Source: an uncultured Oscillospiraceae bacterium
GTDB lineage: Bacteria > Bacillota > Clostridia > Oscillospirales > Oscillospiraceae
Assembly: GCA_947630785.1 (NCBI GenBank)
Contig: CANRIW010000013.1
Coordinates: 1-47,299 of the forward strand
DNA length: 47,299 nt
Direction of reading: 5' to 3'
Below, piece by piece: positions 3,295 through 34,588 of this stretch. The notes below the pieces were generated by a model. The model was not told where the DNA came from and searched no databases. It worked only from the letters and a program-made list of their open reading frames with translations. Numbering within the stretch: position 1 is the first letter of the stretch; each line of letters opens with the position of its first letter. Both the position numbers and the translations under genes were made by a program.

Positions 3295-3908
3295 TACGCG
3301 AACACCTCCTCGATGACAGCCAGCGCGCCCTGGTCGATGATGACTTGGTTGGCGTTGACGATATCGTACACGTTGATGAGGTTGGCGGGGCTGGTCACCA
3401 CGCCGGGGATGTTCCGGGCGGACTTGACCACGTTGGGGCAGGCGGTGACCACCAGGGCCTTTTTTGACTCCACAGCGCTGAGGAAGCCGGCGAAGGTCTT
3501 GGTCTTGATCTCGCCCATCTCCAGCTTATCCACCACCAGCACATCGCCGGAGGCGGCCTTGGAGGACAGAGCGGACTTCAGAGCCAGGCGCTTGACTTTC
3601 TTGTTCAGGCTGTAGCTGTAGTCCCGGGGCTTGGGGGCGAACACGATGCCGCCGTGGGTCCACTGGGGGGCGCGGGTGCTGCCCTGACGGGCGTGGCCGG
3701 TGCCCTTCTGGCGCCAGGGCTTTTTGCCGCCGCCGGACACTTCCGCGCGGGTGAGGGCGCTCTGGGTGCCCTGCCGGCAGTTGGCCAGGTGGTTCTTGAC
3801 CGCGTCGTGCATGACGGAGACGTTGGGCTCGATGCCGAAGACGGCCTCGGAGAGCTCGACCTCGCCGATCTGCTTGCCGGTCATATTGTAAAGGTTCGCT
3901 TTAGGCAT
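3294..3908 (-). CDS. rplD: 50S ribosomal protein L4
   Basis: 204 aa, normal length. It has the extended loop with [20 protein letters not shown], which reaches into the exit tunnel, and the conserved C-terminal alpha/beta fold. In enterobacteria L4 represses its own S10 operon by binding the leader; whether it does so here is unknown, but a structured leader exists (see 5083-5343). Confidence 0.97.
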
Positions 3909-3927
3909 TTGTCACACTCTCCTTTCC

Positions 3928-4650
3928 TTAGCGGTTACGCGCAGAGGCCTTCTGCGGGTTGACGCGGGCGGAGGCCTTCTGCGGGTTGACGCTGATACCG
4001 GCGGCGCCCTTCTTCTCGAAGACCTTCTTCACGCTGCTGTGGAGGGCGACCACGCCGCCCTTGGGGCCGGGGACCGCGCCGCGCACGGCGATGACGCCCA
4101 GCTCCTCGTCCACCTGGACGATGTCCAGGTTCATCACGGTGACCTGCTCGTTGCCCATCTGGCCAGCGCCGTTCTTACCCTTGAAGATCCGGGAGGGATC
4201 GGTGCTGGAGCCCATGGAGCCGGAGTGGCGGTGGACCGGGCCGCCGCCGTGGGTCATCTTCTGGATGTGGGTGTTGCAGCGCTTCACAGAGCCCTGGAAC
4301 CCCTTGCCTTTGCTGATGCCGGTGATGTCCACCCGGTCGCCGGGGGCGAACACGGTGGCGTTGATCTCATCGCCCACGTTCAGGCTGTCGGCATTGTCCA
4401 GCTTGAACTCCTTCAGGACACGCAGGGCCTTGCCGGCCTTCTTGCTGTGGCCCAACTCGGGCTTGGTGAGCTTCTTTTCCGGGACCTCATCGAATCCCAG
4501 CTGGACGGCGGAGTAGCCGTCCTTTTCCTCGGTCTTCTTCTGCACCACGGTGCAGGGGCCCGCCTGGATGACGGTGACCGGGATGACCTTGCCGGCGTCG
4601 TCGAAGATCTGGGTCATGCCCACCTTCTTGCCGATAATGGCCTTCTCCAT
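3928..4650 (-). CDS. rplC: 50S ribosomal protein L3 with duplicated C-terminus
   Basis: 240 aa, about 20-30 longer than usual. The body is normal: it starts MEKAIIGKKVGMTQIFDDAGK and has the GKGFQGSVKRCN and THGGGPVHRHSGSMGSS blocks that approach the peptidyl transferase centre. The C-terminus ends in a 9-residue unit, VNPQKASAR, repeated twice and followed by NR, encoded by a 27-bp tandem duplication. An AAGGAGGA ribosome site precedes the start. Confidence 0.97.
   Translation of the reverse strand: MEKAIIGKKVGMTQIFDDAGKVIPVTVIQAGPCTVVQKKTEEKDGYSAVQLGFDEVPEKKLTKPELGHSKKAGKALRVLKEFKLDNADSLNVGDEINATVFAPGDRVDITGISKGKGFQGSVKRCNTHIQKMTHGGGPVHRHSGSMGSSTDPSRIFKGKNGAGQMGNEQVTVMNLDIVQVDEELGVIAVRGAVPGPKGGVVALHSSVKKVFEKKGAAGISVNPQKASARVNPQKASARNR
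3944..3997. repeat. 27-bp tandem duplication at the end of rplC
   Basis: The unit starting GAGGCCTTCTGCGGGTTGAC at 3944 recurs at 3971, giving a 27-base period; the first 22 bases of both copies are identical. It encodes the VNPQKASAR repeat at the L3 C-terminus and keeps the reading frame. Confidence 0.9.
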
Positions 4651-13926: not shown

Positions 13927-14904
13927 TCAGTCGAATTTCAGGGTGCTGTACTGGCCGTACTTCCTGCCCTCGTCGTCGATGATGCCGTCCACCCCGGGAA
14001 CCACGGAGAACATGACGGCGGAGGAGCACAGCAGACCGCCTCCCTTTCCCAGGGTGTCGATGACCCGGCGGACCTCTGCCCTGATCTGCTCCTCGGTGGC
14101 ACCGGGGGCGTCGGTGACCTGGGGGTCCACCGCGCCGGCGAAGATGAGCCTGTCGCCGTACTCCGCCTTGAGCTTCTTCAGGTCGTTGCAGGGCTGGACG
14201 CTGTGCCAGCTGTCCACCCCGATCTCCACCAGATCGCCGATGATGGGCTCGTTGTAGCCGCAGGAGTGGTGCATATAGTACATCCCTAACTCATGGCACC
14301 GCTTGACCATGCGGCGCTCCGGCTCCTTGTAGAACTTCCGCCACATCTCCGGGGACATGAACAGGTTGTTCTGGTTGCCCCAGTCGTCGTGCATCATCAG
14401 GAAGTCCACGTCCAGGTACTTCTTGAAGTACTCCATCTGCTCGATGCGGTAGTCGGCGTAGGCCTCCACGTACTCGGCGTAGGCCTCCTCGTCGTCATAG
14501 GGGGCCATCAGGCCGTTGACGTGGCCCATCATGGCGCAGATGCGCTCGAACGCGCCGATGTTGCATACCACATAGCCCATGATCTGGTCCTTTTTGGCCC
14601 ACATGGCCCGGGTGCGCATGGCCGCAGCCTCCCAGTTTTTGTCCCCGCAGCTCTTGAAGTCGATGTACTTCTTCCACTCGGTGATGTCGTCGAAGATCTC
14701 CCCGCCGGGCTTCACGTGGGTCATCAGCTCCGGGTGGGCGGGGTCCAGTTCCCATTCCAGGCCGAAGTCGTCCTTCCCGCTCATGAACAGGGGGCGGTCG
14801 TTGATCTCCGGGGTGACGATCATCTGGGAGGCGGTGTTGATCATGGGCACCCACTCGGGCTGCTTGTGCTCCCAAACCAGCTGCATATTTTCGCGCTCTG
14901 TCAT
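13927..14904 (-). CDS. URO-D/MtaA-type corrinoid methyltransferase-like protein A
   Basis: 325 aa. Member of the uroporphyrinogen-decarboxylase superfamily, whose MtaA/CmuA branch moves methyl groups to or from corrinoid proteins. A zinc site of the form H-x-C-x77-C is readable: HSCG in MYYMHHSCGYN and C in GGLLCSSAV. It lacks the N-terminal arginine signature of true heme-pathway HemE. It lies downstream of a second URO-D gene on the same strand and opposite a third, beside a corrinoid protein, which supports a methyl-transfer role. Substrate unknown. It could act as the primary (donor-specific) methyltransferase, since no MtaB, MttB or MtmB homologue is nearby. Confidence 0.8.
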   Translation of the reverse strand: MTERENMQLVWEHKQPEWVPMINTASQMIVTPEINDRPLFMSGKDDFGLEWELDPAHPELMTHVKPGGEIFDDITEWKKYIDFKSCGDKNWEAAAMRTRAMWAKKDQIMGYVVCNIGAFERICAMMGHVNGLMAPYDDEEAYAEYVEAYADYRIEQMEYFKKYLDVDFLMMHDDWGNQNNLFMSPEMWRKFYKEPERRMVKRCHELGMYYMHHSCGYNEPIIGDLVEIGVDSWHSVQPCNDLKKLKAEYGDRLIFAGAVDPQVTDAPGATEEQIRAEVRRVIDTLGKGGGLLCSSAVMFSVVPGVDGIIDDEGRKYGQYSTLKFD

Positions 14905-14945
14905 AATACGGTCCCTCCTGTGTTTTCTGATTGGAATAAGGACTC

Positions 14946-15956
14946 TTATTTGGCGTAGAACTCATCCACGGCGGCAAAGAACGCGTCGATGTTCTCCCAG
15001 CTGGAGGCGGGAGGAATGTCGCAGCCGGAGGAGATGACGAAGTTGGGATAGCCGCAGCAGTCCCCCATCACCTCCAGGGTCCTGGCCCGGACGGTCTCGG
15101 GGGTGCCGTTGCGGAACTGGCCGGCGGGGTCTACGTTGCCCATGACCAGCACGTCGCTGGGGGAGCCGGCCATGATATCCTTCATGTCCACCGCGTTGCC
15201 GAAGTGGTAGGCGGCGGCGCCGCACTGATACCACTGGGGCAGGGCCTTTGCCACCGAGTTGCCGCAGTTGTGGAGCAGCACCATGAAATCGTCGTCCTGC
15301 ACCGCGGAGATGATGCGCTGCAGATAGGGCACGGCGAACTCCTCGATCAGGCTGGGGGAGAGCAGGCCGGCGGCGGGCTCGGCGATGCAGACGCCGTGGG
15401 CCCCCACGGCCTTGAAGCCCTTGATGTACTCGGTGATGAACTCCGTGGCCTTCTCCAGGGTGGTCTCCACCATCTCGGGCTCCTCGTAGCAGTTGATCAT
15501 CAGCTCGGACATGCCCATGAGCCGCCCCGCCAGGGAGAAGGGCCCGATGACCCCGGCGATGACCGGCCGGTCGGTGATCAGCTTACACACTTTCTCGATG
15601 GCCTCGATATACACGCCGGTGCGGCCCGTCCCCACGGCGGGGACCTTCAGGGCCTCGGCGTCCTCCGGGCTCTCCAGCAGGGCGCCCACCACGGTGGGGA
15701 CCTCGTCGTCGGCCACATGGATGGAGGCGCCGAAGGCCTCCGCCTCCACCGACAGGTCCATCATGGACACGGCGGCGCCGGTGTCGCACCGGTCGGCCAC
15801 CAGCTTCATGCCTTTTGCCTGGAGATCGCTGTCATAGACCAGGTCCCGGACGGTGACGCCCAGAAGCTGGATACAGGGGAAGGAGAGCACGGGGACGGCT
15901 TTTTTGCGGGAGGCGGCCAAGGTGTCGCTCACCCATTGTTTCATGGTGGTCTGCAT
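14946..15956 (-). CDS. URO-D/MtaA-type corrinoid methyltransferase-like protein B
   Basis: 336 aa, a usual MtaA length. It has the zinc site H-x-C-x80-C (HNC in MVLLHNCGNSV; C in VISSGCDIPP), close to the spacing known for MtaA. GVIGPFSLAGRLMG is the MtaA-like central motif. In known systems MtaA-type enzymes pass the methyl group from the corrinoid protein to coenzyme M or another thiol or folate acceptor. It is the first gene of a minus-strand pair with protein A, with a TATAAT-containing divergent promoter region upstream and an AGGAGGAAAT ribosome site. Confidence 0.85.
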   Translation of the reverse strand: MQTTMKQWVSDTLAASRKKAVPVLSFPCIQLLGVTVRDLVYDSDLQAKGMKLVADRCDTGAAVSMMDLSVEAEAFGASIHVADDEVPTVVGALLESPEDAEALKVPAVGTGRTGVYIEAIEKVCKLITDRPVIAGVIGPFSLAGRLMGMSELMINCYEEPEMVETTLEKATEFITEYIKGFKAVGAHGVCIAEPAAGLLSPSLIEEFAVPYLQRIISAVQDDDFMVLLHNCGNSVAKALPQWYQCGAAAYHFGNAVDMKDIMAGSPSDVLVMGNVDPAGQFRNGTPETVRARTLEVMGDCCGYPNFVISSGCDIPPASSWENIDAFFAAVDEFYAK

Positions 15957-16001
15957 ACATATTTCCTCCTTTTTTGGCGGTTCATTGTGTATACTGTTTA
16001 A

Positions 16002-16110
16002 ATTATAGCAAAACGTCCTCCGCCCGTATAAAATTTCCTTTCGGTTTTTGTGATTTTTTTACGATTTCCATTCCTTGCCCCTTGACGGAGGCTGGCAGTA
16101 CCGTTACAAT
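16002..16110. promoter_or_regulatory. Divergent promoter region of the methyltransferase genes
   Basis: Plus strand: TTGACG (16082-16087), 17 bases, TACAAT (16105-16110). Minus strand: a consensus TATAAT (16002-16007 as ATTATA) with a poor -35, suggesting an activator. An AT-rich block TTTTTGTGATTTTTTT lies at 16045-16060 between them and recurs before the corrinoid-protein promoter. The PocR-AraC protein is the likely regulator. Confidence 0.65.
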
Positions 16111-16160
16111 GAAAATATGTGAAATTGAATAAGAATCTAAAACAGGAGAGGAGAATTTTT

Positions 16161-17270
16161 ATGAATTCATTTGAAAAAATCCAGCGCTGCTTCGACCTGG
16201 TCCCGCCCGCCGACCGCAAAGACATCCCTGTGTATCCCATGATGCTCCTCTATCCCGGCCGGGTGGCCGGCTTCACCCAGAAGGAGATCACCTCCGACAT
16301 GGACAAGTGGCTCCAGGCCCTAGACATCACCTTCCAGAAGATCGGCACCCCTGACCTGTGCCAGGGCAATCCTCCCGGGGACGTGATGTTCCTCCAGGGC
16401 ATCGAGGCCCTGCGCCCCGGTTATGAGCTGGACGAGGACGCCAGCTATCAGTTCAAAGAGACCTGCCACATGCAGCCGGAGGACTACCAGGACATCATCG
16501 ACAACGGCTACCTCCAGTGGTACAACCGCTATCTCTGCACCATCCAGCACCCGCCCATCACCAACATCCCGGACATCGGCAAGCTGTGGATGCAGGTGGG
16601 CATGAACGCCGGAAAGGTAGCCGGCTTCCTGGCCCAGCGGGGGGTGAGCCCCATCCACGGCACCGCCTCCGGCACCCCCTTCGACACCCTCTCCATGGTC
16701 CGCTCCTTCGGCGAGTTCGTCTACGACCTGTACGACGAGCCCGACCTGGTAAAGGCCGCCATCGACAAGGGCACCCCGGAGGTGCTGGGCCAGATCCTGG
16801 GCACTCTGGAGCACTCCCCCCTGAAGCGGGCCAGCCTCTACGCCATGCGGTCCGACGCCAACTCCATCTCCCCCGCCATTTTCGAGGAGTTCTCCTGGCC
16901 CTCCCTGAAGGCCATCATCCTGGGCCTCCACCAGGCCGGCGTCCAGGCGGTGCTCCACGCCGACGGCAACTGGCTGCCCATGCTGCCCAAGCTGCTGGAG
17001 CTGCCCAAGGGCAGCACTCTGGTGGAGCTGGACGGCGTCACCGACATCCACGCCGCCTACGACATCCTCAAGGGCTGGCTGCCCATCCGGGGCGACGTGC
17101 CCGCCACCATGCTGGCCTTCGGCACTCCCGACCAGGTGTCCGCCTACTGCGAGGACCTGATCCAGATGTCCATGGCCAAGGGCGGCCTGGTGCTGGGCAG
17201 CGGCTGCGAGGTCCCGCTGAACTGCAAGCTGGAGAATCTGAAGGCCATGATGGACTCCGTCCGCGCCTGA
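16161..17270 (+). CDS. URO-D-superfamily protein C, altered metal site
   Basis: 369 aa from ATG 16161, chosen because of GGAGAGGAG just upstream. Same superfamily as proteins A and B, but the predicted zinc triad reads H-x-D-x80-C (HAD in AVLHADGNWL; C in GSGCEVP), so one cysteine ligand is replaced by aspartate. The family core is clear: GTASGTPFDTLS, then MRSDANSISPAIFEEF. The change may alter the acceptor or mark a donor-specific methyltransferase. It heads the plus-strand set that continues with the PocR-AraC gene and the corrinoid protein gene. Confidence 0.8.
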   Translation: MNSFEKIQRCFDLVPPADRKDIPVYPMMLLYPGRVAGFTQKEITSDMDKWLQALDITFQKIGTPDLCQGNPPGDVMFLQGIEALRPGYELDEDASYQFKETCHMQPEDYQDIIDNGYLQWYNRYLCTIQHPPITNIPDIGKLWMQVGMNAGKVAGFLAQRGVSPIHGTASGTPFDTLSMVRSFGEFVYDLYDEPDLVKAAIDKGTPEVLGQILGTLEHSPLKRASLYAMRSDANSISPAIFEEFSWPSLKAIILGLHQAGVQAVLHADGNWLPMLPKLLELPKGSTLVELDGVTDIHAAYDILKGWLPIRGDVPATMLAFGTPDQVSAYCEDLIQMSMAKGGLVLGSGCEVPLNCKLENLKAMMDSVRA

Positions 17271-17277
17271 GGCGGGA

Positions 17278-17310
17278 GGCCCGAGCCCGCCGGTTCGGCG
17301 GGCCCGGCCT
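17278..17310 (+). other. GC-rich hairpin between protein C and araC genes
   Basis: GCCCGCCG and CGGCGGGC form a tight stem within a longer GC-rich inverted repeat before the araC ribosome site (AGGAGG). There is no T-run, so it looks like an mRNA stability or partial attenuation element. Confidence 0.4.
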
Positions 17311-17328
17311 GACACAGGAGGACTTGAC

Positions 17329-18600
17329 ATGAGCGACAGCTATGTCATCGATCTGGATGCGGCGAGATCCATGGTGAACGCCTTCGCCGGGACCACCGGC
17401 GTCCGCTGCCGGCTGATCTCCGCCGCCGGTGAGACGCTGTACCAGTCCGGCCGGCCGGAGGACGAGTGTGCCTATCTGAAAGCCCTTCCCGGGATACCGC
17501 CCCCCTGTACCGACCTCCACCTGAGAGGCATCCGCCAGGCGGAGCGCTTCGGAGGCCGGTACATCTATGCCTGCCCCTCCAGCCTGGCCTACTGCGCCAG
17601 CCCCATCATGGTGGGGGGCGCTCTGGCGGGGGGGCTGGTGGCCGGCCCCGTGCTGTTGATGGACACCGACGATCTGCTGGAAGAACTGATCGAGCGCCGC
17701 GGCGTCCGTCAGGATGAGCTCGCGTCCCTGTGGAACTTTCTCTGTGATATCCCGCACATGGAGTCCGCCCGGCTGAGCCAGTTGTCCCTTCAGCTGTTCG
17801 CCGACACTCTTTGCATCGGGGACAACAGCCGGGAACTGTTCCTCCAGCGGGACGATGGGCTGCAGCAGCAGAACATGGGGCAGTATATCCACCAGGTCAA
17901 GGCGGTCGGGCAGGACGCCCGCTATCCCGTCGAGAAGGAACCGCAGCTCTACGCCGCGGTGGCGCGGGGCGACCGGGCCGCCGCTGCCGCCCTGCTCAAC
18001 GATCTGCTGGGACACATCTTCTTTCTGACCCCGGATCCTGAGACGAGCGGCTTTCAGGTGGCGATGCTGCTCTGGCTGCTGTCCAGAGCAGCCATCCACG
18101 GCGGGGCCGACCAGGAGGCCGCGCTGGCCATCAGCGACCAGTATCTGAAAAAGCTGCGCCGCCTCCGCACCCAGGAGGATATCGCCCAGTGGCTGTCCCA
18201 GGCCCTGCGCCGTTACACCGCCCTGGTGTTCAAGCTGGTAGACACCAAGCACCGGGACGTGATCCAAAAGGCCATGGGCTATATGCAGGCCAACTGCGGC
18301 CGGAACCTGACTTTGGGAGAAGTGGCCGACTATGTGAGCTACTCCCACTCCTATTTCTCCAAGGTATTCAAAGAGGAGCTGGGCTTCGGCTTCTGCGCCT
18401 GCCTCAACCAGCTGCGGGTGGAAAAGAGCAAGGTGCTCCTGCTGGCCAGCAGCGCCACCATGTCCGAGATCTACGCTGCCTGCGGATTCGAGGACCAGAG
18501 CTATTTCTGCAAGGTATTCAAACGGGTGACAGGGGTCACCCCCGACCGCTACCGCAAACAGAGCCGCCGCATCGATGAGCGCAGGGAGCGGGACCTATAA
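17329..18600 (+). CDS. AraC-family regulator with PocR sensory domain
   Basis: 423 aa. Residues about 1-165 match the PocR ligand-binding fold (DLDAARSMVNAFAGTTGV, then CTDLHLRG, then YIYACPSSLAYCASPI and GGALAGGLVAGP), named after the propanediol/cobalamin regulator. A helical linker follows, and two HTH motifs of AraC type at about 315-415 (LTLGEVADYVSYSHSYFSKVFKEE and MSEIYAACGFEDQSYFCKVFKR). PocR-type sensors are frequent beside corrinoid methyltransferase genes and may sense the methyl donor. It probably activates the divergent promoters at 16002-16110 and the promoter at 18662-18689. AGGAGG lies before the ATG. Confidence 0.88.
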   Translation: MSDSYVIDLDAARSMVNAFAGTTGVRCRLISAAGETLYQSGRPEDECAYLKALPGIPPPCTDLHLRGIRQAERFGGRYIYACPSSLAYCASPIMVGGALAGGLVAGPVLLMDTDDLLEELIERRGVRQDELASLWNFLCDIPHMESARLSQLSLQLFADTLCIGDNSRELFLQRDDGLQQQNMGQYIHQVKAVGQDARYPVEKEPQLYAAVARGDRAAAAALLNDLLGHIFFLTPDPETSGFQVAMLLWLLSRAAIHGGADQEAALAISDQYLKKLRRLRTQEDIAQWLSQALRRYTALVFKLVDTKHRDVIQKAMGYMQANCGRNLTLGEVADYVSYSHSYFSKVFKEELGFGFCACLNQLRVEKSKVLLLASSATMSEIYAACGFEDQSYFCKVFKRVTGVTPDRYRKQSRRIDERRERDL

Positions 18601-18614
18601 AAAATTATTATGAT

Positions 18615-18689
18615 TTTTTGTAATTTTCCCGTCTGTTCTCACGGATTTGTTGCGGCGTTTTTTGACTTTTGCTAAATTAGTTGTATCAG
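18615..18689 (+). promoter_or_regulatory. Promoter and AT-rich motif before the corrinoid protein gene
   Basis: TTGACT (18662-18667), 16 bases, then TATCAG (18684-18689) form a moderate promoter. Upstream, TTTTTGTAATTTTCCC (18615-18630) resembles the block at 16045-16060 and may be the same regulator site. Confidence 0.5.
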
Positions 18690-18734
18690 AATCCATTACA
18701 TAAATGAACGAATCATGAAACGGAGGTATTTGTT

Positions 18735-19370
18735 ATGAGCACTTTGACCGAGATTGGTGAAGCCCTGGAGCGCGGCAAGCGCAAGCAAGTGGTCCAGCTG
18801 GTCCAGCAGGCCCTGGACGAGGGCCTGGCCCCCCAGCAGATCCTGACCGAGGGCCTGCTCCCCGGCATGGACCGGGTGGGCCTGAAGTTCCGCAACAACG
18901 AGATCTTCGTCCCCGAGGTGCTGGTGGCTGCCCGGGCCATGAGCGCCGGCACCGAGGTGCTGAAGCCCCTGCTGGCCGAGGCCGGCAGCACCAGCGCGGG
19001 CAAGGCCGTGCTGGGCACCGTGAAGGGCGACCTGCACGACATCGGCAAGAACCTGGTGAAGATGATGCTGGAGGGCAAGGGCATCGAGGTGGTCGACCTG
19101 GGCGTGGATGTGGCCCCTGAGACCTTTGTCCAGGCCGCCGTCGACAACGACGCCAAGCTCATCTGCTGCTCCGCCCTGCTGACCACCACCATGCCCGTCA
19201 TCGGCGATGTGGTCAAGGCCGCCGAGGCCGCCGGCATCCGTGACAAGGTGAAGATCATGGTGGGCGGCGCCCCCCTGACCCAGGAGTTCTGCGACTCCAT
19301 CGGCGCCGACTGCTACACCCCCGACGCGGCCTCCGCCGCCATCCGGGCCGTGGAGCTGCTCTCCGCGTAA
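18735..19370 (+). CDS. Corrinoid protein of a methyltransferase system
   Basis: 211 aa, the usual size of MtaC/MtbC/MttC-like shuttles. Residues about 5-90 are the helical cap domain; residues 92-210 are the B12-binding Rossmann fold with D99-x-H101-x-x-G104 (GDLHDIGKNLV), where H101 is the lower cobalt ligand, and with SALLTTTM and VGGAPLTQEF as the other family blocks. It carries a methyl group on cobalt between donor and acceptor methyltransferases; here the partners are probably the URO-D proteins. A GGAGGT ribosome site precedes it. A cobalamin riboswitch lies directly downstream, so the shuttle itself is transcribed independently of it. Confidence 0.95.
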   Translation: MSTLTEIGEALERGKRKQVVQLVQQALDEGLAPQQILTEGLLPGMDRVGLKFRNNEIFVPEVLVAARAMSAGTEVLKPLLAEAGSTSAGKAVLGTVKGDLHDIGKNLVKMMLEGKGIEVVDLGVDVAPETFVQAAVDNDAKLICCSALLTTTMPVIGDVVKAAEAAGIRDKVKIMVGGAPLTQEFCDSIGADCYTPDAASAAIRAVELLSA

Positions 19371-19405
19371 AACCGTACCACAAACAGAATACCATCCGTT
19401 CCGTG

Positions 19406-19437
19406 GCCCGGACGGGGCCCTGCCGCACCGTCCGGGC
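19406..19437 (+). other. Hairpin between corrinoid gene and riboswitch
   Basis: GCCCGGACGG (19406-19415) and CCGTCCGGGC (19428-19437) pair perfectly over 10 bp. There is no T-run after it. It may end or stabilise the corrinoid-protein mRNA or be the outer part of the riboswitch. Confidence 0.5.
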
Positions 19438-19615
19438 TGAACAAGACAATCGGGTGAGAATCCCGAACGGTACCGCCGCTGTATGCAGCTGAGGCGCCCT
19501 TCAGGCGAAAGCCGGTCACTGGAGAGATCCGGGAAGGCGAAGGGGGCCGCGGGGAGTCCGTCTCCCCACAGGCGCGAGTCAGAAGACCTACGGAAACCGG
19601 GGCGCCGCCCCCCGC
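19438..19615 (+). ncRNA. Cobalamin (B12) riboswitch
   Basis: The conserved elements appear in order: GGGTGAGAATCCC followed by ACGGTACCGCCGCTGTA, then AAGCCGGTCACTGG, then the B12-box-like GCGCGAGTCAGAAGACCTAC. It precedes a hairpin with a T-run and then the DUF4430, ECF and RamA-type genes. High cobalamin would be expected to turn these genes off. The ends are approximate. Confidence 0.9.
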
Positions 19616-19653
19616 GAGCATCGGGGAAGCGCGGCGTCTGCATGCGGAAAACA

Positions 19654-19690
19654 CGGCCGCGGCGTCAGTTCTGATGCCGCGGCCGCTTTT
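19654..19690 (+). terminator. Riboswitch-controlled terminator
   Basis: CGGCCGCGGCGTC (19654-19666) pairs with 19673-19685 with one G-U pair, then CTTTT. It lies between the B12 box and the AGGAGG of the DUF4430 gene, the normal place for the expression platform. Confidence 0.75.
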
Positions 19691-19714
19691 CAACATTCAG
19701 AGGAGGAAAAAACC

Positions 19715-20110
19715 ATGAAGAAAAATCAGAAGCTCATCATCGCCGCCGTCGTGGCGGTACTGCTGGTCGTCTGCCTGCTGGTGATCTATTTCGCCACCCG
19801 CCCGGCGACCTCCCAGGGGGCCAAGACGGTCACGGTGGAGGTGGTCCACGGCGACGGCTCGTCCAAGGCCTTCACCTACCACACCGATGCGGAGTACCTG
19901 GGCGAGGTGCTGCTGGCCGAGGGGCTCATCGCGGGCGATGAGGGCGAATTTGGCCTGTACATCACCCGGGTGGACGGCGAGGACGCCATCTACGAGGAAA
20001 ACAACGCCTACTGGGCCCTGTACGAGGGGGAGGACTACGCCATGCAGGGGATCGACCAGACCCCCATCGCCGACGGGGATACCTTCTCCCTGGTATACAC
20101 CGTTGGCTGA
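19715..20110 (+). CDS. DUF4430 membrane-anchored protein, cobalamin uptake
   Basis: 131 aa. MKKNQK is followed by a hydrophobic helix (LIIAAVVAVLLVVCLLVIYF) that acts as signal anchor; the rest faces outside. The outer domain (VTVEVVHGDGSSKAFTYHT, EYLGEVLLAEGLI, NAYWALYEGEDYAMQGID) matches DUF4430, related to the C-terminal domain of the B12 carriers transcobalamin and intrinsic factor. Placement directly under a cobalamin riboswitch and in front of an ECF S component supports B12 capture. AGGAGG lies before the ATG. The stop overlaps the start of the next gene. Confidence 0.88.
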   Translation: MKKNQKLIIAAVVAVLLVVCLLVIYFATRPATSQGAKTVTVEVVHGDGSSKAFTYHTDAEYLGEVLLAEGLIAGDEGEFGLYITRVDGEDAIYEENNAYWALYEGEDYAMQGIDQTPIADGDTFSLVYTVG

Positions 20111-20627
20111 GCGGAAAGGCGGCCTCCTGCTGGCGGAGCTGGCCCTGTTCGGCATCCTGGGCGGACTGACCTTCGGCATGAAGGTGGTGATGGCCCCCCT
20201 GCCCAACATCGAGCCGGTGTCCCTGATGGTCATGCTGTTCGCCGTCACCTTCGGGCGGAAGGCGCTGTACCCCATCTACGTGTATGTGCTGCTGGAATTT
20301 CTCCTGTACGGCTTCAATCTATGGTCCGTCAACTACCTGTACATCTGGCTGATCCTGGCCGTGGGGGCCTGGCTCATGCGGGAGGCTGTCCATCCCCTGG
20401 CCTGGGCCCTGCTGTCCGGCGGGTTCGGGCTGCTGTTCGGGGCCCTGTGCGCGCCGGTGGACGTGTTCATAGGCGGCTTTGGGTACGCCGCGGCCCGGTG
20501 GGTCTCCGGCATCCCCTATGACCTGCTCCACGGAGCTGGCAATTTCGTCATCGCGCTGGTCCTGTTCGTCCCCCTGCGCCGGCTGATGGACCGGCTGTAT
20601 CAGTCCCTGCGGAACAACCACCGCTGA
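20103..20627 (+). CDS. ECF transporter S component, probably for cobalamin
   Basis: 174 aa with about five or six hydrophobic segments (LLLAELALFGILGGLTFGMKV, VSLMVMLFAVTF, ALYPIYVYVLLEFLLYG, YLYIWLILAVGAWLM and others). S components bind a vitamin and share an energising ECF module encoded elsewhere. The start is uncertain: the likely TTG at 20103 overlaps the stop of the DUF4430 gene; the in-frame sequence further upstream is not membrane-like. The riboswitch and the DUF4430 partner point to cobalamin or a precursor. No CbiQ or ATPase gene is nearby. Confidence 0.8.
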   Translation: MAERKGGLLLAELALFGILGGLTFGMKVVMAPLPNIEPVSLMVMLFAVTFGRKALYPIYVYVLLEFLLYGFNLWSVNYLYIWLILAVGAWLMREAVHPLAWALLSGGFGLLFGALCAPVDVFIGGFGYAAARWVSGIPYDLLHGAGNFVIALVLFVPLRRLMDRLYQSLRNNHR

Positions 20628-20644
20628 GCGATCGGAGGAACGCT

Positions 20645-22180
20645 ATGAACATCACCGTGTTACTGGAGACCGGGCCGGTCAACCTGTCCGCCCGGCCGGG
20701 AGAAACCCTGCTGGACGTTCTGCGGGAGCATGAGGGCATGCCCGTCCACGCCCCCTGCGGCGGACAGGGGACCTGTCAGAAGTGTACCGTCTTCCTGTCC
20801 GGCCCGGAGGGGGAGACCCCCGTGCTGGCCTGCCGCACCCCGGCGGAGGAGGGAATGACCCTCCGGCTGCCCCCAGTCGCCCCCCTGGCGGTGGAGCTGG
20901 ACAGCGCCGCCCGTGCCTCCCTCCCCGCCGACCCAGGGTTGTCTGGCTATGGGATTGCCTGCGACATCGGCACCACCACCGTGGTGTGCCAGCTGACGGA
21001 GCTGGCCACCGGAAAAGTCCTGGCCAGCGCTGGGGAGGGCAATGCCCAGCGGCCCTACGGGGCCGACGTCATCGCCCGCATCCGGGCCTCCATGGACGGG
21101 CGGCGCCCCGCCCTCACCGCGGCCATCACCGGGCAGCTGTCCCGGATGATCGGGGAACTGTGCCGCTCCGCCGGGGTGCCGGTGGAGGAGGTAAGCCGTA
21201 TGGTCGTGGCCGGCAACACCACCATGTGCCATCTGCTGGCCGGTCTGCCGCCTGACGGAATCGGCGTGGCCCCCTTCACCCCGGTCTCCCGGTTCGGGGA
21301 CTGCCACGACGCCCGGGCCCTGGGACTTCCCTTCGACGGGGAGGTGTATATCTGTCCCGCCGTGTCCGGCTACGTGGGGGGCGATATCACCGCCGACCTG
21401 CTGGCGGCCGGCCTGGACCGGGCGGACGCCCCTGCCCTGCTCATCGACGTGGGCACCAACGGCGAGATGGCCCTGGGGTACGGGGACCGGTTCGTGTGCT
21501 GCTCCACCGCCGCCGGCCCCGCCTTCGAGGGGGCCCAGATCCGCTTCGGCATGACCGCCGCGCCGGGGGCGATCTCGGAGGTCCGCCTGGAGGGCGGGAA
21601 AGTGGTCTGCTCCGTCATCGGCGGCGGGCCCGCCGTGGGTGTCTGCGGCTCCGGTCTCATCGACGCCGTGGCCCTCATGCTGGAACTGGGCGCCGTGGAT
21701 GAGACTGGGCGGATGCTGGACGTGGAGGAGGACGACATCCCCGAAGAGGCCGCCCCGTATCTCTTCCTGCTGGACGATTCCCCCGCCTTCCGCCTGGCGG
21801 ACGGAGTGGCCGTCACCCAGGCGGACATCCGCAAGCTCCAGCTGGGCAAGGGGGCCATCGCCGCCGGCGTCCGGGTGATGCTGGACGCCTACGGGGCGGA
21901 GTTCGGCCAGGTGGGCCGGCTGCTGCTGGCCGGAGGGTTCGGCAGCTATATCCGCCCGGAGAGCGCCGCCCGCATCGGTCTCATCCCGGCGGAGCTGCTC
22001 CCCGTCACCCAGGCGGTGGGCAATACCGCCGCCCAGGGCGCGCTGGAGGCGCTGGTGTCCTCTGACGCCCGGGCCCGGCTGGCCCGCCTGCAGGCAAACA
22101 TGGACTACCGGGAGCTGTCCAATCTGCCCCAGTTCAACGACGCCTATATGGACGCCATGATGTTCCCGGAGGAGGATTGA
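20645..22180 (+). CDS. RamA-type corrinoid reductive activator (ASKHA, DUF4445)
   Basis: 511 aa. Restores inactive Co(II) corrinoid to Co(I) using ATP. Residues 1-80 are a [2Fe-2S] ferredoxin domain with C38, C44, C47 and C63. A linker follows, then an actin-like ATPase core: GIACDIGTTTVVCQL near 98, VVAGNTTMCHLL near 187, LIDVGTNGEMAL near 265, and LAGGFGSYI near 430. The architecture matches RACo/AcsV-like activators in acetogens. It lies in the riboswitch-controlled set, and its partner is most likely the corrinoid protein upstream. Gaps to its neighbours are short. Confidence 0.93.
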   Translation: MNITVLLETGPVNLSARPGETLLDVLREHEGMPVHAPCGGQGTCQKCTVFLSGPEGETPVLACRTPAEEGMTLRLPPVAPLAVELDSAARASLPADPGLSGYGIACDIGTTTVVCQLTELATGKVLASAGEGNAQRPYGADVIARIRASMDGRRPALTAAITGQLSRMIGELCRSAGVPVEEVSRMVVAGNTTMCHLLAGLPPDGIGVAPFTPVSRFGDCHDARALGLPFDGEVYICPAVSGYVGGDITADLLAAGLDRADAPALLIDVGTNGEMALGYGDRFVCCSTAAGPAFEGAQIRFGMTAAPGAISEVRLEGGKVVCSVIGGGPAVGVCGSGLIDAVALMLELGAVDETGRMLDVEEDDIPEEAAPYLFLLDDSPAFRLADGVAVTQADIRKLQLGKGAIAAGVRVMLDAYGAEFGQVGRLLLAGGFGSYIRPESAARIGLIPAELLPVTQAVGNTAAQGALEALVSSDARARLARLQANMDYRELSNLPQFNDAYMDAMMFPEED

Positions 22181-22182
22181 CC

Positions 22183-22719
22183 ATGACAGACGAACAACTG
22201 CTGGAGCTGGCCGCGGGCTGCGGCTTCGATCACGTGGGGATGCTGAACGTCCCCGCCCTGAAATTCGAGCCGGCGGTGCGGGACATGTGCGCCGCCGATA
22301 AATGCCGCAGCTACGGCAAATGCTGGACCTGCCCGCCTCACTGCGGCACCCTGGAGGACTTCGCCGCCAGGGCGGCCCAATATCACCGGGGGGTCATCGT
22401 CCAGACCACCGGGCAACTGGAGGACGACTACGACGTGGAGACCATGATGGCCGCCGAGGTCCTCCAGAAAGAGCGGTTCCGGGCCCTCACCGAACAGATG
22501 CGGGCAGTCTTCCCCGGCTGTATGCCCCTGTCCGCCGGGGCCTGCTCTGTCTGCAAGACCTGCGCCTGCCCCGACGCGCCCTGCCGCTTCCCGGAGCTGG
22601 CCATCCCATCCATGGAGGCCAGCGGCCTCAACGTGAGCGCCACATGCGCCGCCTCCGATATCAGCTACTATTACGGACCCAGGACCATAACCTACACCTG
22701 CTGTATTCTTACCGATTGA
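22183..22719 (+). CDS. DUF2284 metal-binding protein
   Basis: 178 aa. Cysteine-rich: KCRSYGKCWTCPPHCG near residue 45 is the DUF2284 signature, followed by GACSVCKTCACPDAPCRFP near 125 and a C-terminal CCILTD. Such proteins often sit beside corrinoid methyltransferase genes and may bind an Fe-S cluster, but no function is proven. The ATG at 22183 follows GGAGGA and lies three bases after the activator stop, so it is the last gene of the riboswitch operon. Confidence 0.85.
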   Translation: MTDEQLLELAAGCGFDHVGMLNVPALKFEPAVRDMCAADKCRSYGKCWTCPPHCGTLEDFAARAAQYHRGVIVQTTGQLEDDYDVETMMAAEVLQKERFRALTEQMRAVFPGCMPLSAGACSVCKTCACPDAPCRFPELAIPSMEASGLNVSATCAASDISYYYGPRTITYTCCILTD

Positions 22720-28743: not shown

Positions 28744-29883
28744 CTAATCCTCCCCGGCGATGTCCGCCACGGCCCGGACCGCCCGGTCGATCTCCTCCCT
28801 GGTGTTGAAGCAGGAGAAGCTGAACCGCACCGCGCCCCGCTCTTCCGTGCCCAGGGCTTTGTGCATCAGAGGGGCGCAGTGGGCCCCCGCCCGGACGCAG
28901 ATCTCCGCCTCGTCCCACAGGGACTGGCTGACCTTCCCGGCGTCCAGGTCCCCGATGTTCAGGGTGACGATAGGGGCCCGGACCGGGGCGTCTGTGTCGC
29001 CGTAGAGGGTCACGCCGGGGATGGACCGCACTCCGGCGATGAATCGCCGCGCCAAAGCGTCCTCCGCCCGGTGGATATCCTCCACGCCCCGCTCCAGGAC
29101 GTAGTCCAGGGCTGCCCCCAATCCGGCCAGGCCGTGGGCGTTGAGGGTGCCAGCCTCCAGGGCCTCGGGAAGTTCAGCGGGATGGGCCCGGTCGAAGCTG
29201 CGGAACCCGCTGCCTCCCGTCAACAGGGGCGGGATATCCAGGCCCTCCCGGACGCACAGACCTCCGGTGCCCTGGGGGCCCATGAGGCCCTTGTGCCCGG
29301 TGAAACACAGGACGTCCACGCCCAGCGCTTCCATGTCGATGGGCAGCTCCCCGGCGGTCTGAGCCGCGTCCACGATGAGCAGCAGCCCGTGAGCTTGTGT
29401 GAAATCCGAAACTTTCTGCAAATCAACGGCGTTCCCCGTCACGTTGGAGGCATGGCCCGCCACCACCGCCCGGGTGTTGGGGCGCAGGCTGTCCTCCAGA
29501 GCGTCCAGGTCCATCCGGCCCAGACTGTCCGCCGGGAGGATGGTCAGCTCCGTCCCCTGGTCCTCCTTTCGGTAGAGGGGCCGGAGAACGGAGTTGTGCT
29601 CGCAGGCGGTGGTGATAACGTGGTCCCCGGGGCGGATAAGCCCCCCGATGGCAGTGTTCAGCGCCTGTGTGGCGTTGGCTGTAAAAGCCACCCGGGCGGG
29701 GTCGGAGACGCCCAGAAGGGCGGCGATCTTCTCCCGGACACCGTAGATGAGCCGGGAGGCGGCCAGTGCCGGCCCGTGGGCGCCCCGGCCGGCATTGCCC
29801 AGGGTGCGCAGGGCCCGGGCCATGGCCTCCTCCACCGCGGGGGGGCGGTGGAGGGCGGTGGCGGCGCTGTCCAGGTAGATCAC
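28744..29883 (-). CDS. Cysteine desulfurase-family aminotransferase (class V)
   Basis: 379 aa, PLP-dependent. The GTG start at 29883 overlaps the yedF stop by four bases. The PLP lysine is in CFTGHKGLMGPQGTGG, the cofactor aspartate and histidine in IVDAAQTAG and TACEHNSVL, and the mobile-loop cysteine in RAGAHCAPLMHKALGT. It belongs to the short SufS/CsdB-like branch seen beside selD and yedF. It probably releases sulfur or selenium from cysteine or selenocysteine to feed selenophosphate synthesis or the YedF/DUF3343 carriers. Confidence 0.9.
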   Translation of the reverse strand: MIYLDSAATALHRPPAVEEAMARALRTLGNAGRGAHGPALAASRLIYGVREKIAALLGVSDPARVAFTANATQALNTAIGGLIRPGDHVITTACEHNSVLRPLYRKEDQGTELTILPADSLGRMDLDALEDSLRPNTRAVVAGHASNVTGNAVDLQKVSDFTQAHGLLLIVDAAQTAGELPIDMEALGVDVLCFTGHKGLMGPQGTGGLCVREGLDIPPLLTGGSGFRSFDRAHPAELPEALEAGTLNAHGLAGLGAALDYVLERGVEDIHRAEDALARRFIAGVRSIPGVTLYGDTDAPVRAPIVTLNIGDLDAGKVSQSLWDEAEICVRAGAHCAPLMHKALGTEERGAVRFSFSCFNTREEIDRAVRAVADIAGED

Positions 29884-30500
29884 GGCCTGACCACCAGCCC
29901 GGCCCCGGTCAGCTTCTCCACGATGTCGTACATATTGGTGACGCCGCCCACCCGGAGCTTCTCGGTGAGGCCGTAGAAGTTGAGACAGGTGCCGCAGGTC
30001 AGGATCTCCGTCCCCCGGGCCTCCAGGTCCTTTAGATCCTCCAGAGAGACGGAGCCCTCGCAGGTGAGCTTCGCCCCGCCGTTGTAGAACAGGACCGCGG
30101 CCGGGGGCTCCTCCTGCCGGGCCAGGGCGTAGAGGAATGCCTTCATCAGGGCGGCCCCCAGCTCGTCATTGCCAGTCCCCATGGCAGAGGACGACACCGC
30201 CACCACCGTATTCCCCCGCTTCGGCACGGGAGCGCAGACGATCTCCTCCGGCTCGTCCTCCTCGGGGATGCCGCCGGCGATGGACAGGGTGACCCGGTAC
30301 TGATCCTTCCCCAACTGCTGGGAGGACACGCCGTAACCCTTTTGAACGGCCATCTTGGTCAGGTTCTGGACGGCGATCTCGTTGTCCACCAGGGTCTCCA
30401 CGGTGCCGGGAGCACCGTTCAGCTCCCGGATGGCCGCTCTGGTCTTGACCACCGGGATGGGACAGGGGTCTCCCATGGCGTTGACAGTCTTTTTCATCAT
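29880..30500 (-). CDS. yedF: YedF selenium-metabolism protein
   Basis: 206 aa. The N-terminal TusA-like domain has the CPIP motif (GDPCPIPVVKT, C13), the persulfide or perselenide site. The C-terminal part, from about residue 95, has a DsrE-like pattern (VAVSSSAMGTGNDELGAALMKAFLYAL) and a CGTCLNFYG motif. The fused form is the selenium-type YedF found with selD. I prefer the ATG at 30500 with AGAGGG before it; the next codon is also ATG. It sits between selD and the desulfurase gene in one operon. Confidence 0.92.
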   Translation of the reverse strand: MMKKTVNAMGDPCPIPVVKTRAAIRELNGAPGTVETLVDNEIAVQNLTKMAVQKGYGVSSQQLGKDQYRVTLSIAGGIPEEDEPEEIVCAPVPKRGNTVVAVSSSAMGTGNDELGAALMKAFLYALARQEEPPAAVLFYNGGAKLTCEGSVSLEDLKDLEARGTEILTCGTCLNFYGLTEKLRVGGVTNMYDIVEKLTGAGLVVRP

Positions 30501-30514
30501 GATCACCCTCTGTG

Positions 30515-31540
30515 TCAGTTTATCGTGATCTCCGGCTCCGTTTTTTCCAAAAGCTCCCCGATGACAGCCGCCGGCATACCTGCCGTCCGCAGTTCCGCCT
30601 CCAGGTCCCGCGCCTGGTCCGGGGAGACGGCCAGCAGCAACCCGCCGGAGGTCTGGGAGTCGAACAGGATCTCCTCCATGGCGAAGGGGACACTGTCAAA
30701 ACGGACGGCGTCCCCGGCAAAGTTCCGGTTCCGCTGACCCGCCGCCGTCAAAAGAAACTCGTCGGCATGGCGTTTGGCCTCACCGATGACAGGCACCTGC
30801 TTCCACCGGACGGTAGCGGACAGCTTCCCGTCCAGCATCTCCCGCAGGTGGCCGATCAGGCCGAATCCGGTGACGTCGGTGCAGGCATGGACCTCATACC
30901 TCGCCGCGATCTCAGCGGCCCGTTTGTTCAGCGTTGTCATGGAGGCAATCGCCTCAGCCATCCCCTCCGGCGACGCCTCCCCTACCCGGTTGGCGGTGCA
31001 GAGGATGCCCACCCCCAGCTTTTTGGTGAGGATGAGCTTATCCCCCGGCCGGCCCCGGTTATTGGCCAGCGCCCGATCCGGGCGGACCGTCCCCATGACG
31101 GACAGGCCGTACAGCACCCCGTCCCCGGCGATGGAGTGGCCTCCGGCCAGGGTGCCGCCGGCCTCGATGACCTTCTCCGCGCCGCCCTGGAGAATCTTCC
31201 CCAGAACGTTCAGATCCCACTTCTCCGGGAAGCAGACGATGTTCAGCGCCGTTTTGACCTCCCCGCCCATGGCGTAGATGTCGCTGAGGGCGTTGCATGC
31301 CGCGATCTGGCCAAAGGTGTAGGGGTCGTCCACCATAGGGGGGAAAAAATCCAGGGTCTGGACTACGGCGGTGTCGTCGGAAATACGGTAGACCGCCGCG
31401 TCGTCCCGGCTGTCGTAGCCCACCAGCAGGTCCGGGTCCGCCGGGCCCTTGGGCAGCTTTGACAGCACCCGGCTCAGCACCCCCGCCCCCAGCTTGGCGG
31501 TACAGCCGCCGCCCTTACAGAATACGATGTCCTCCGGCAT
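30515..31540 (-). CDS. selD: Selenophosphate synthetase, cysteine form
   Basis: 341 aa. Makes selenophosphate from selenide and ATP for selenocysteine and other selenium cofactors. The active-site pair is C13-x-x-K16 (GGGCTAKLG); the position that is selenocysteine in some homologues is cysteine here. The [41 protein letters not shown] and AGGHSIAG blocks are typical. The ATG at 31540 has GGGGAGG upstream; an in-frame extension further upstream crosses the promoter and is rejected. It heads the operon selD-yedF-desulfurase-DUF3343. Confidence 0.96.
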
Positions 31541-31571
31541 AGTCCGGCCTCCCCTGTTCGTTGTCCCTTTC

Positions 31572-31600
31572 AGTATACAACGCGTCCCCGGCGATTTCAA
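31572..31600 (-). promoter_or_regulatory. selD operon promoter
   Basis: On the minus strand TTGAAA (31595-31600), 17 bases, TATACT (31572-31577). It is a twin of the divergent yqeC promoter. Confidence 0.8.
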
Positions 31601-31613
31601 TCGCGGCTTTTGC

Positions 31614-31642
31614 TTGAAACGGAGCGCCGTCCGGGTTATACT
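31614..31642 (+). promoter_or_regulatory. yqeC-yqeB-xdhC promoter
   Basis: TTGAAA (31614-31619), 17 bases, TATACT (31637-31642). Hexamers and spacing are identical to those of the selD promoter; the two -35 boxes form an inverted repeat TTTCAA-N13-TTGAAA. Confidence 0.8.
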
Positions 31643-31667
31643 GAGAAAAAAGGCGGGGGTGAGCGAA

Positions 31668-32336
31668 ATGACCTTTGGGGAGGCGCTGGATATCCCGGCG
31701 GGCGTCACGGCGGTGATCGGCAGCGGGGGAAAGACCACGCTGCTCTCCGTACTGGGGCGGGAGCTGGCGGCGGCCGGCCGCTCGGTGCTGCTGTGTACCA
31801 CCACGAAGATCTACCCCTTCCCGGACGTGCCGCTGGCCGTCTCAACGGCGGAGCTGAAGCAGGTGCGGCAAAAGCACCGTTTGTTCTGTGCCGGTACGCC
31901 CCTGCCGGGGACCGGCAAGCTGACGGCTCCGGCCCTTCCCATGGCGGCCCTGGCGGAGCGGTTCGACTATGTGCTGGTGGAGGCGGACGGCGCCGCCGGG
32001 CACCCGCTGAAGGCCCACGCGCCCCACGAGCCGGTGATCCCGCCGGAGGCCCGGCAGGTGATCTGCGTGGCGGGGCTCACCGGCCTGGGACAGCCGATTG
32101 CCGCCGCAGCCCACCGGCCGGAGCTGTACGCCCGGCTGGCGGGGGCCGGCATGGACGAGGCCGTCACGCCGGAGATCGCCGCCCGGGTGCTGAACGGCGA
32201 GAGCACCGGCTGGCGGTATTTTCTCAATCAGGCGGACACGCCGGCCCTGCTGGAGCGGGGCCAGGCCCTGGCGGCCCTGCTGAGCGGGCCCGCCGCGGTG
32301 GGGAGCCTGTGGAAGGGGGATATCCAATGCTTGTAG
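31668..32336 (+). CDS. yqeC: YqeC, selenium-dependent hydroxylase accessory protein
   Basis: 222 aa. P-loop protein with GSGGKTTLL at 18-26 close to the N-terminus, CTTTKIYP, and [24 protein letters not shown] in the middle, the signatures of YqeC. The family is linked by genome context to the maturation of selenium-dependent molybdenum hydroxylases; its chemistry is unknown. The ATG at 31668 has GGGGGT before it; a GTG three codons upstream is possible. It overlaps yqeB by 10 bases and faces selD across twin promoters. Confidence 0.92.
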
Positions 32337-33124: not shown

Positions 33125-33128
33125 GCTC

Positions 33129-34565: not shown

Positions 34566-34588
34566 GGTTCAGCCTCCAATCTCAGTGG

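What the first reader, a model, noticed from the sequence alone, without database searches (positions are those of the whole stretch)
13927..22719. Corrinoid methyl-transfer island with three URO-D proteins and no recognisable donor methyltransferase
One corrinoid shuttle, a RamA-type activator, a DUF2284 protein, a PocR-AraC sensor and B12 uptake genes sit with three different URO-D-superfamily proteins, but no MtaB, MttB or MtmB homologue is present. One of the three is likely the donor-specific enzyme, as with the URO-D domain of CmuA. The methyl donor, perhaps a methoxylated plant or host compound, is unknown.
Basis: partly seen in the sequence, partly recalled or inferred. Interest (0 to 1): 0.75.

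Follow-up and report, generated by a model that had tools for sequence, protein, structure and literature searches.

The report
Gut cassette moving methyl groups to thiols
An 8.8-kb cassette in a gut bacterium appears to take methyl groups from an unknown donor, load them on a vitamin B12 carrier and pass them to a sulfur compound by a methanogen-like enzyme, where related systems use folate; this is a testable reading of sequence, not a shown activity.

Summary
In detail: three URO-D proteins (A, B, C) sit with one corrinoid protein, a RACo-type activase, DUF2284, a PocR-AraC regulator and a cobalamin-riboswitch gene set. 13927-22719 is also exactly the block shared with a sister genome (92%), where the flanks differ. 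The three proteins are not equivalent. B lies on the MtaA side and keeps its His-Cys-Cys zinc triad (36 of 36 aligned B-family rows). C is in another deep clade, the CdmB side, with an invariant His-Asp-Cys triad (19 of 19). A is in a third clade. Distant C-like and A-like proteins elsewhere stand with a corrinoid protein and an MtvA-like folate methyltransferase; here B stands where MtvA would be, and no locus examined holds both. No MttB, MtaB, MetE or MTHFR was found in the draft genome, and this is its only such corrinoid protein. Best reading: A and C load the carrier, B unloads it onto a thiol (sulfide or homocysteine). The donor is unknown; a methoxylated aromatic is likely. The thiol acceptor is inferred from residues and context, not shown. 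New variant of a known kind.

The parts
13927..14904 (-). A: URO-D-superfamily protein, 325 aa, H-C-V at the zinc positions; candidate donor-specific methyltransferase
   Evidence: Pfam URO-D 56.3 bits; third clade; model pLDDT 88.8 with URO-D/MtaA fold; a 23%-identical clade member lies as MtvA-CP-A-RACo in C. ljungdahlii L125
14946..15956 (-). B: MtaA-like URO-D protein, 336 aa, H-C-C zinc triad; candidate acceptor (thiol) methyltransferase
   Evidence: MtaA 4ay7 E 1.7e-20 with aligned H-C-C; 29.9% identity to the MtaA stretch; H-C-C in 36 of 36 aligned B-family rows
15957..16160 (.). divergent intergenic region between B and C, probable shared control region
   Evidence: gene layout; no regulator site was tested
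16161..17270 (+). C: URO-D protein, 369 aa, H266-D268-C349 triad; candidate donor-specific methyltransferase
   Evidence: best PDB relative CdmB, E 6.2e-16, profile 2.9e-44; H-D-C in 19 of 19 clade rows; model pLDDT 94.7 with the triad at or just after two barrel strands
17329..18600 (+). PocR sensory domain + AraC-type DNA-binding regulator
   Evidence: Pfam PocR 65.1 bits, HTH_18 78.3 bits
18735..19370 (+). corrinoid (B12-binding) shuttle protein, the only B12-binding_2 protein found in the genome
   Evidence: Pfam B12-binding 98.4 bits, B12-binding_2 82 bits; single genome match
19386..19609 (+). cobalamin riboswitch
   Evidence: Rfam RF00174, 56.2 bits, E 2e-11
19715..20110 (+). DUF4430 protein, probable cobalamin-capture protein
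   Evidence: Pfam 24.2 bits, cut-off 23.8; behind the riboswitch; function inferred
20103..20627 (+). membrane protein, probable ECF-type uptake component (start codon uncertain)
   Evidence: no Pfam or NCBIfam match; conserved beside DUF4430 in relatives; function read from sequence
20645..22180 (+). RACo/RamA-type reductive activase with 2Fe-2S domain
   Evidence: Pfam RACo_C_ter 248.9 bits, Raco_middle 166.1 bits, Fer2 33.1 bits
22177..22719 (+). DUF2284 predicted metal-binding protein
   Evidence: Pfam 152.3 bits

Best explanation
The block is a self-contained corrinoid methyl-transfer cassette. C, and probably A, are donor-specific methyltransferases that move a methyl group from an oxygen-bound donor (most likely a methoxylated aromatic) to Co(I) of the corrinoid protein. 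RACo re-reduces the corrinoid with ATP; the DUF4430/membrane genes probably supply cobalamin under riboswitch control; PocR-AraC senses a substrate. B unloads the carrier: its His-Cys-Cys zinc site, as in MtaA, activates a thiol that takes the methyl group, so the acceptor is a thiol (sulfide, methanethiol or homocysteine) and not tetrahydrofolate. Shown: the genes, clades, residues and conserved grouping. Inferred: the direction of each half-reaction, the donor, and the identity of the thiol.
For: B aligns with MtaA over its zinc ligands, groups with MtaA and C. ljungdahlii MtaA-like proteins (SH-aLRT 91, below the 95 mark), and keeps H-C-C in 36 of 36 rows. C has H-D-C in 19 of 19; Kountz and Balskus (PMC10418091) state that in O-methyltransferases of the superfamily one or both Cys ligands are replaced by carboxylates or non-ligands. 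Distant H-D-C proteins lie as CP, URO-D, MtvA-like in L044, L056, L064 and in one locus with both in L048 (= L133) and L052; an A-type protein lies as MtvA-like, CP, A-type, RACo in L125. MtvA-like genes (one blastp query) occur in 8 of 79 loci (7 places), none with B, and in 0 of 39 B loci. In G039 and E. ramulus an A-type protein stands beside B and CP (L217, L126). The genome's only Pterin_bind match is a truncated MetH-like protein; no MTHFR, no MetE. Among 149 related genomes the 6 with a C ortholog all carry B (27 of 149 do) and none shows MTHFR (93 of 149 do).
Against: No activity is known to me for any member of the B clade or the C clade. The CP-URO-D-MtvA operons belong to H-D-C proteins only 29-33% identical to C; within C's own clade only L037 has an MtvA-like gene nearby, without a CP. 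The A-type case (L125) is 23% identical and H-D-A. B is found without a corrinoid protein in the fetched stretch in 19 of 39 loci (several cut by contig ends), so it may have a wider role; likewise 15 of 21 C-clade loci show no CP. Of 16 C-clade genomes outside the window's relatives, 7 lack a B of 50% identity or more. Five of the six C-positive relatives are of one genus, so the Fisher values overstate independence. B alone is not significantly depleted of MTHFR over all 149 (13 of 27 against 80 of 122, p 0.12). MtoA/MtrH-type pterin methyltransferases (PF02007) were not searched. The genome is a draft. Mts-type methanogen enzymes of this family can take methyl from methyl sulfides (PMC7374477), so B could be a donor enzyme.
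Confidence: 0.55

Rival explanations
1. Methyl-sulfur or methyl-selenium salvage: B demethylates a methylated thiol or selenol (as proposed for type 1 mlp gene clusters) and A or C deliver or accept other methyl groups.
For: B has the S/Se-type triad; ClMlp2 demethylates methylcobalamin with selenide in vitro (PMC10418091); a TusA-domain protein (29880-30506) and a SelD-like gene (read from sequence) lie 7-9 kb downstream.
Against: The selenium-type genes lie outside the conserved block, which ends at 22719; none was matched by blastp in the fetched stretches of the 21 C-clade loci or 39 B loci. B is at most 28.7% identical to the three MtaA-like proteins of a C. ljungdahlii cluster that I take to be its mlp cluster (L119).
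Confidence: 0.18
2. Methionine branch: the carrier passes methyl groups to homocysteine through the truncated MetH-like protein elsewhere in the genome (homocysteine domain plus partial pterin domain, no B12 domain), and B is a secondary enzyme.
For: The genome holds this protein, shows no MetE, no MTHFR and no other B12-binding_2 protein, so the island's carrier is the only visible B12 partner.
Against: It is unlinked to the island; its pterin part covers only positions 2-183 of 244; a similar protein lies near B in 1 of 39 loci (L209). The organism may simply take up methionine.
Confidence: 0.15
3. C is a haloalkane (chloromethane) demethylase like CdmB.
For: CdmB is the best PDB sequence match, and C lies in the same 83-row superclade.
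Against: Only 23% identity; CdmB has S-Q-F where C has H-D-C and no zinc (PMC13222342); in the tree CdmB groups with five other rows at 99 and C does not.
Confidence: 0.07

Closest known systems
Methanogen MtaA/MtbA (soluble coenzyme M methyltransferases)
   Same: B: H-C-C zinc triad, 29.9% identity to the aligned stretch of M. mazei MtaA, companion corrinoid protein and activase
   Different: no coenzyme M is known in these bacteria (recalled, not searched); donor enzymes here are URO-D proteins, not MtaB (not found)
Acetogen/archaeal O-demethylase systems Mtv, Odm/Vdm, Mto
   Same: URO-D methyltransferase I, corrinoid protein, RACo-type activase
   Different: no MtvA-type folate methyltransferase found in island or genome (MtoA-type PF02007 not searched); B in that place; C has H-D-C in a clade without a characterised member that I could find
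CdmBCA chloromethane system of Acetobacterium dehalogenans
   Same: C and CdmB share a superclade; same gene logic
   Different: CdmB has no zinc; CdmA is the proposed folate methyltransferase (PMC13222342)
Type 1 mlp gene clusters (Kountz and Balskus)
   Same: MtaA-like protein with H-C-C, corrinoid protein, activase, no folate methyltransferase
   Different: one MtaA-like protein rather than two or three, genes on both strands, extra H-D-C and A-type proteins, only 24-29% identity to the C. ljungdahlii cluster proteins

Membership tests
Type 1 mlp gene cluster | at least two MtaA-like proteins above 25% identity to a known SCMT | tested here: not met
   against a 266-aa stretch of M. mazei MtaA: B 29.9%, A 23.4% over 167, C 24.2% over 207 columns; MtbA and MtsA not available
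Type 1 mlp gene cluster | corrinoid protein and Ram/RACo activase in the cluster | tested here: met
Type 1 mlp gene cluster | all parts transcribed in one direction | tested here: not met
   A and B on minus, the rest on plus strand
Type 1 mlp gene cluster | no folate methylase within 20 kb | tested here: met
   single genome match to Pterin_bind, on contig C1; the island's contig ends 13.9 kb upstream
Type 1 mlp gene cluster | Mlp2 and Mlp3 orthologs | tested here: not met
   B 24-29% to the three proteins of C. ljungdahlii L119, own clade
Mtv/Odm/Mto O-demethylase system | methyltransferase I in the MtvB/OdmB/VdmB/MtoB clade | tested here: inconclusive
   those reference sequences could not be fetched; C is in the same superclade as CdmB
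Mtv/Odm/Mto O-demethylase system | corrinoid protein plus RACo-type activase | tested here: met
Mtv/Odm/Mto O-demethylase system | pterin methyltransferase II | tested here: not met
   only a truncated MetH-like protein matches Pterin_bind; PF02007 was not searched
Mtv/Odm/Mto O-demethylase system | demethylation of methoxylated aromatics | not testable with these tools
   needs an assay
Cdm chloromethane system | zinc-free CdmB-type active site | tested here: not met
   H-D-C in C, S-Q-F in CdmB
MtaA-type thiol methyltransferase (for B) | H-C-C zinc triad in a URO-D-family protein | tested here: met
   (B itself was not modelled)
MtaA-type thiol methyltransferase (for B) | methyl transfer to a thiol | not testable with these tools
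   needs an assay

The most novel reading that the evidence does not exclude
The B-CP-(A/C) cassette is the gene set behind sulfide-dependent O-demethylation, in which anaerobes move methyl groups of methoxylated plant aromatics onto sulfide to make methanethiol and dimethyl sulfide; B would be the sulfide/methanethiol methyltransferase. Such physiology is described for Parasporobacterium and Sporobacter; here one Parasporobacterium genome (G156) carries both a C-clade protein and B (52%), a second (G158) carries C but no good B, and a Holophagaceae genome (G170) carries an H-D-C protein and a 40% B.
Probability: 0.22. Interest if true: 0.82.

Novelty: new variant of a known kind. Interest (0 to 1): 0.6.

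Why it matters
Most bacterial corrinoid demethylation systems examined so far hand the methyl group to folate (so PMC10418091); this one looks built to hand it to a thiol, as methanogens do with coenzyme M, in a gut bacterium whose draft genome shows no enzyme for making methyl-folate. If right, it links diet-derived methoxy groups to sulfur chemistry (methanethiol, dimethyl sulfide or methionine) in the gut and gives a marker gene, B, which occurs in 27 of 149 related genomes. It also suggests roles for A-type and H-D-C-type URO-D proteins, large groups usually annotated only as uroporphyrinogen decarboxylase family.

Tried and rejected
Selenium link through the downstream selenium-type genes: rejected as a part of the system, because the conserved block ends at 22719 and those genes were not matched near C or B elsewhere. 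CdmB-type dehalogenase: set low on active-site residues. Ordinary HemE: rejected (HemE model 70.4 bits for B, cut-off 302.95). A selenocysteine reading of an in-frame TGA in a C. ljungdahlii URO-D gene: it stands where relatives have a conserved Arg, so it looks like a nonsense change; left as it is. Terminal repeats or a mobile element at the block ends: none evident to me. PADLOC: no match for A and C. Structure searches listed URO-D, MtaA and, lower, MetE and other barrels, and cannot tell substrates.

Rows dropped: before the tree, 10 URO-D fragments under 290 aa and 16 near-identical rows, then 2 rows of L139 that do not look like URO-D. 9 of 36 genomes with weak B matches (E above 1e-80) were not counted as B. 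1 of 7 genomes with a 30% C match was not counted as C. Overlaps in the counts: L070 = L230 in the 39 loci; L048 = L133, L057 = L123 and L078 = L127 in the 79 loci.
Full report
OBSERVATION. Three URO-D genes, called A (13927-14904, minus), B (14946-15956, minus) and C (16161-17270, plus), are followed on the plus strand by a PocR-AraC regulator, one corrinoid protein (CP), a cobalamin riboswitch, a DUF4430 gene, a membrane gene, a RACo-type activase and a DUF2284 gene. B and A form a probable two-gene unit (41-bp gap) divergent from C. The draft genome (2.17 Mb, 98.5% complete) has no MTTB match, no MtaB match, one B12-binding_2 protein, the island's own, and four URO-D genes. MtmB was not searched.

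THE BLOCK IS A UNIT. Against a sister genome (G030), window 13927-22719 aligns end to end (8814 columns, 92.2%), from the stop codon of A to the stop codon of DUF2284, and neither flank aligns; a second sister (G024, contig cut inside the CP gene) agrees at the A end (89.2%, to 13912). No terminal repeats or transposase-like ends were evident to me. In G030 and G024 a fourth URO-D gene sits next to A; in the window's genome its ortholog is on contig C15.

THREE DIFFERENT URO-D PROTEINS. In a 134-row FastTree and a 55-row IQ-TREE quick tree with a mixture model the three lie in three deep clades. B is on the MtaA side: best PDB match M. mazei MtaA, E 1.7e-20, with MtaA's His-x-Cys and Gly-Cys aligned; B, MtaA and C. 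ljungdahlii/Sporomusa MtaA-like proteins form a 16-row group at SH-aLRT 91, under the 95 mark. B is 24-29% identical to the three MtaA-like proteins of C. ljungdahlii locus L119, which also holds a CP and a RACo gene and which I take to be its mlp cluster. C is on the CdmB side: best PDB match CdmB, 83-row superclade at 100. At the zinc positions the 19 rows of C's clade have His-Asp-Cys, the 36 aligned B-family rows have His-Cys-Cys, A has His-Cys-Val, CdmB has Ser-Gln-Phe. Across the 30-row alignment of C with its distant kin, His266, Asp268 and Cys349 are invariant. AlphaFold2 models of C (pLDDT 94.7) and A (88.8) have the URO-D/MtaA barrel; in C the triad lies at strand 262-267 and just after strand 343-347. 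CdmB's entry was not among the 50 structural matches listed. B was not modelled.

WHO LOADS AND WHO UNLOADS THE CARRIER. Neighbourhoods suggest the roles. In L044, L056 and L064 an H-D-C protein lies between a CP gene and an MtvA-like pterin methyltransferase gene; in L048 (the same place as L133) and L052 all three occur in one locus; in C. ljungdahlii (L125) an A-type protein lies as MtvA-like, CP, A-type, RACo. So distant C-like and A-like proteins look like donor-side enzymes of folate-using systems. These H-D-C proteins are 29-33% identical to C and outside its 19-row clade; inside it only L037 has an MtvA-like gene near, without a CP. The A-type protein of L125 is 23% identical to A. MtvA-like genes, sought with one blastp query, were found in 8 of the 79 loci (7 places); none of those carries B. 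Of 39 B loci (38 places), 20 have a CP, 14 a RACo gene, 12 a further URO-D gene of varied type, and 0 an MtvA-like gene; in L217 (G039) and L126 (E. ramulus) an A-type gene, B and CP stand side by side. In the window, B stands where MtvA would be. The genome's only Pterin_bind match is a truncated MetH-like protein, homocysteine domain plus part of a pterin domain, without a B12 domain. MTHFR and MetE were not found. MtoA/MtrH-type PF02007 was not searched.

CO-OCCURRENCE. In 149 related genomes (window's own included) C orthologs (77% identity or more) occur in 6, B (43% or more) in 27, MTHFR in 93. All 6 with C have B and none shows MTHFR (Fisher 2e-5 and 0.002). Five of the six are of one genus, so these values are too optimistic. 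B alone is not significantly depleted of MTHFR (13 of 27 against 80 of 122, p 0.12; within the genus 1 of 6 against 25 of 36, p 0.02). Outside, 9 of 16 C-clade genomes carry B at 52% identity or more and 7 do not.

DONOR. Not known. Points toward an aromatic ether: the Asp-for-Cys change (rule taken from PMC10418091); DAPG-hydrolase genes (PF18089) near C-clade genes in 3 of 21 loci (L036, L040, L043) and old-yellow-enzyme-like genes in 3 of 21 (L039 checked by Pfam; L038 and L053 by 28% blastp matches), families linked to plant phenolics (recalled). These are minorities. In 15 of 21 C-clade loci no CP was seen in the fetched stretch; recurrent neighbours are a LysR-type regulator (11 of 21) and a PucR-type regulator (9 of 21) (representatives checked).

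ACCEPTOR. A thiol is inferred from B's triad. Sulfide is attractive: papers read in passages (PMC8359953, PMC7374477, PMC6841923) say that Sporobacter and Parasporobacterium paucivorans convert methoxylated aromatics to acetate, methanethiol or dimethyl sulfide, and that sulfide methylation by O-demethylation is a main source of these gases in freshwater sediments; the title of Lomans et al. 2001, seen in a reference list only, calls the Parasporobacterium process obligately sulfide-dependent. A Parasporobacterium MAG (G156) has both a C-clade protein and a 52% B; a second (G158) has C but only a 24% match to B; a Holophagaceae MAG (G170) has an H-D-C protein and a 40% B. That Holophaga does this chemistry is recalled, not read. 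The listings showed me no paper naming the sulfide methyltransferase gene, but I read only passages of three, so absence from print is not claimed. Homocysteine is the other candidate, directly by B or through the truncated MetH-like protein.

COMPARISON. Kountz and Balskus (PMC10418091; parts 1-4 of 6 read) described type 1 mlp clusters, with MtaA-like H-C-C proteins, CP and activase and no folate methylase, and proposed S/Se methyl metabolism, with transfer to a thiol such as sulfide as one step. The window shares that logic but fails their criteria of two MtaA-like proteins, one direction, and Mlp2/Mlp3 orthologs. The Cdm paper (PMC13222342; outline, parts 1-2 of 3 of the results and the phylogeny section read) gives H4folate as the likely Cdm acceptor and shows URO-D clades of unknown substrate; C probably belongs to such a one. 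Passages only were seen of PMC8630106, PMC12915777, PMC13418474, PMC11170127 and PMC13188914; none changed the reading. The result is a new variant: donor-side enzymes of the folate-using kind joined to an acceptor-side enzyme of the methanogen kind.

VERDICT. Observation confirmed, interpretation partly supported and re-cast. Confidence in the role assignment 0.55; in sulfide as the acceptor about 0.2-0.25.

Noticed in passing
G000 contig C15, locus L023:8207-9439 (minus): Fourth URO-D gene of the genome, CdmB side, Ile-Glu-Ile at the zinc positions; in sister genomes G030 and G024 its ortholog lies beside A, so it may serve the same carrier.
   Followed up: partly
G000 contig C1, locus L006:505-2052: MetH-like protein with a homocysteine domain and a shortened pterin domain but no B12 domain, in a draft genome without a match to MTHFR or MetE.
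   Followed up: partly
window 28744-34046 and 34059-39663: Selenium-type genes (TusA-domain protein tested; SelD-, YqeB/YqeC-, XdhC-like read from sequence only) next to molybdenum-cofactor-type genes (read from sequence) and a Moco riboswitch at 39528-39663(-), as in selenium-dependent molybdenum hydroxylase sets.
   Followed up: no
window 39893-42306: FAD_binding_2 reductase with an adjacent FMN_red flavoprotein; a similar pair (48% and 29%) lies about 7-9 kb from the C ortholog in G071 (L020:761-3482).
   Followed up: partly
loci L197, L200, L201, L204, L207, L211, L213, L216, L224: B homologs standing among unrelated genes without a corrinoid protein in the fetched stretch, suggesting a role wider than this cassette.
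   Followed up: partly
L123 about 3161-4300 (C. ljungdahlii, minus): An H-D-C type URO-D gene interrupted by one in-frame TGA at a position where relatives have a conserved Arg; probably a disabled copy rather than selenocysteine.
   Followed up: partly
genome G154 (Alkalibacter mobilis): 33 URO-D matches in a 2.5-Mb genome, some in tandem, the largest number of the six genomes in that search.
   Followed up: no
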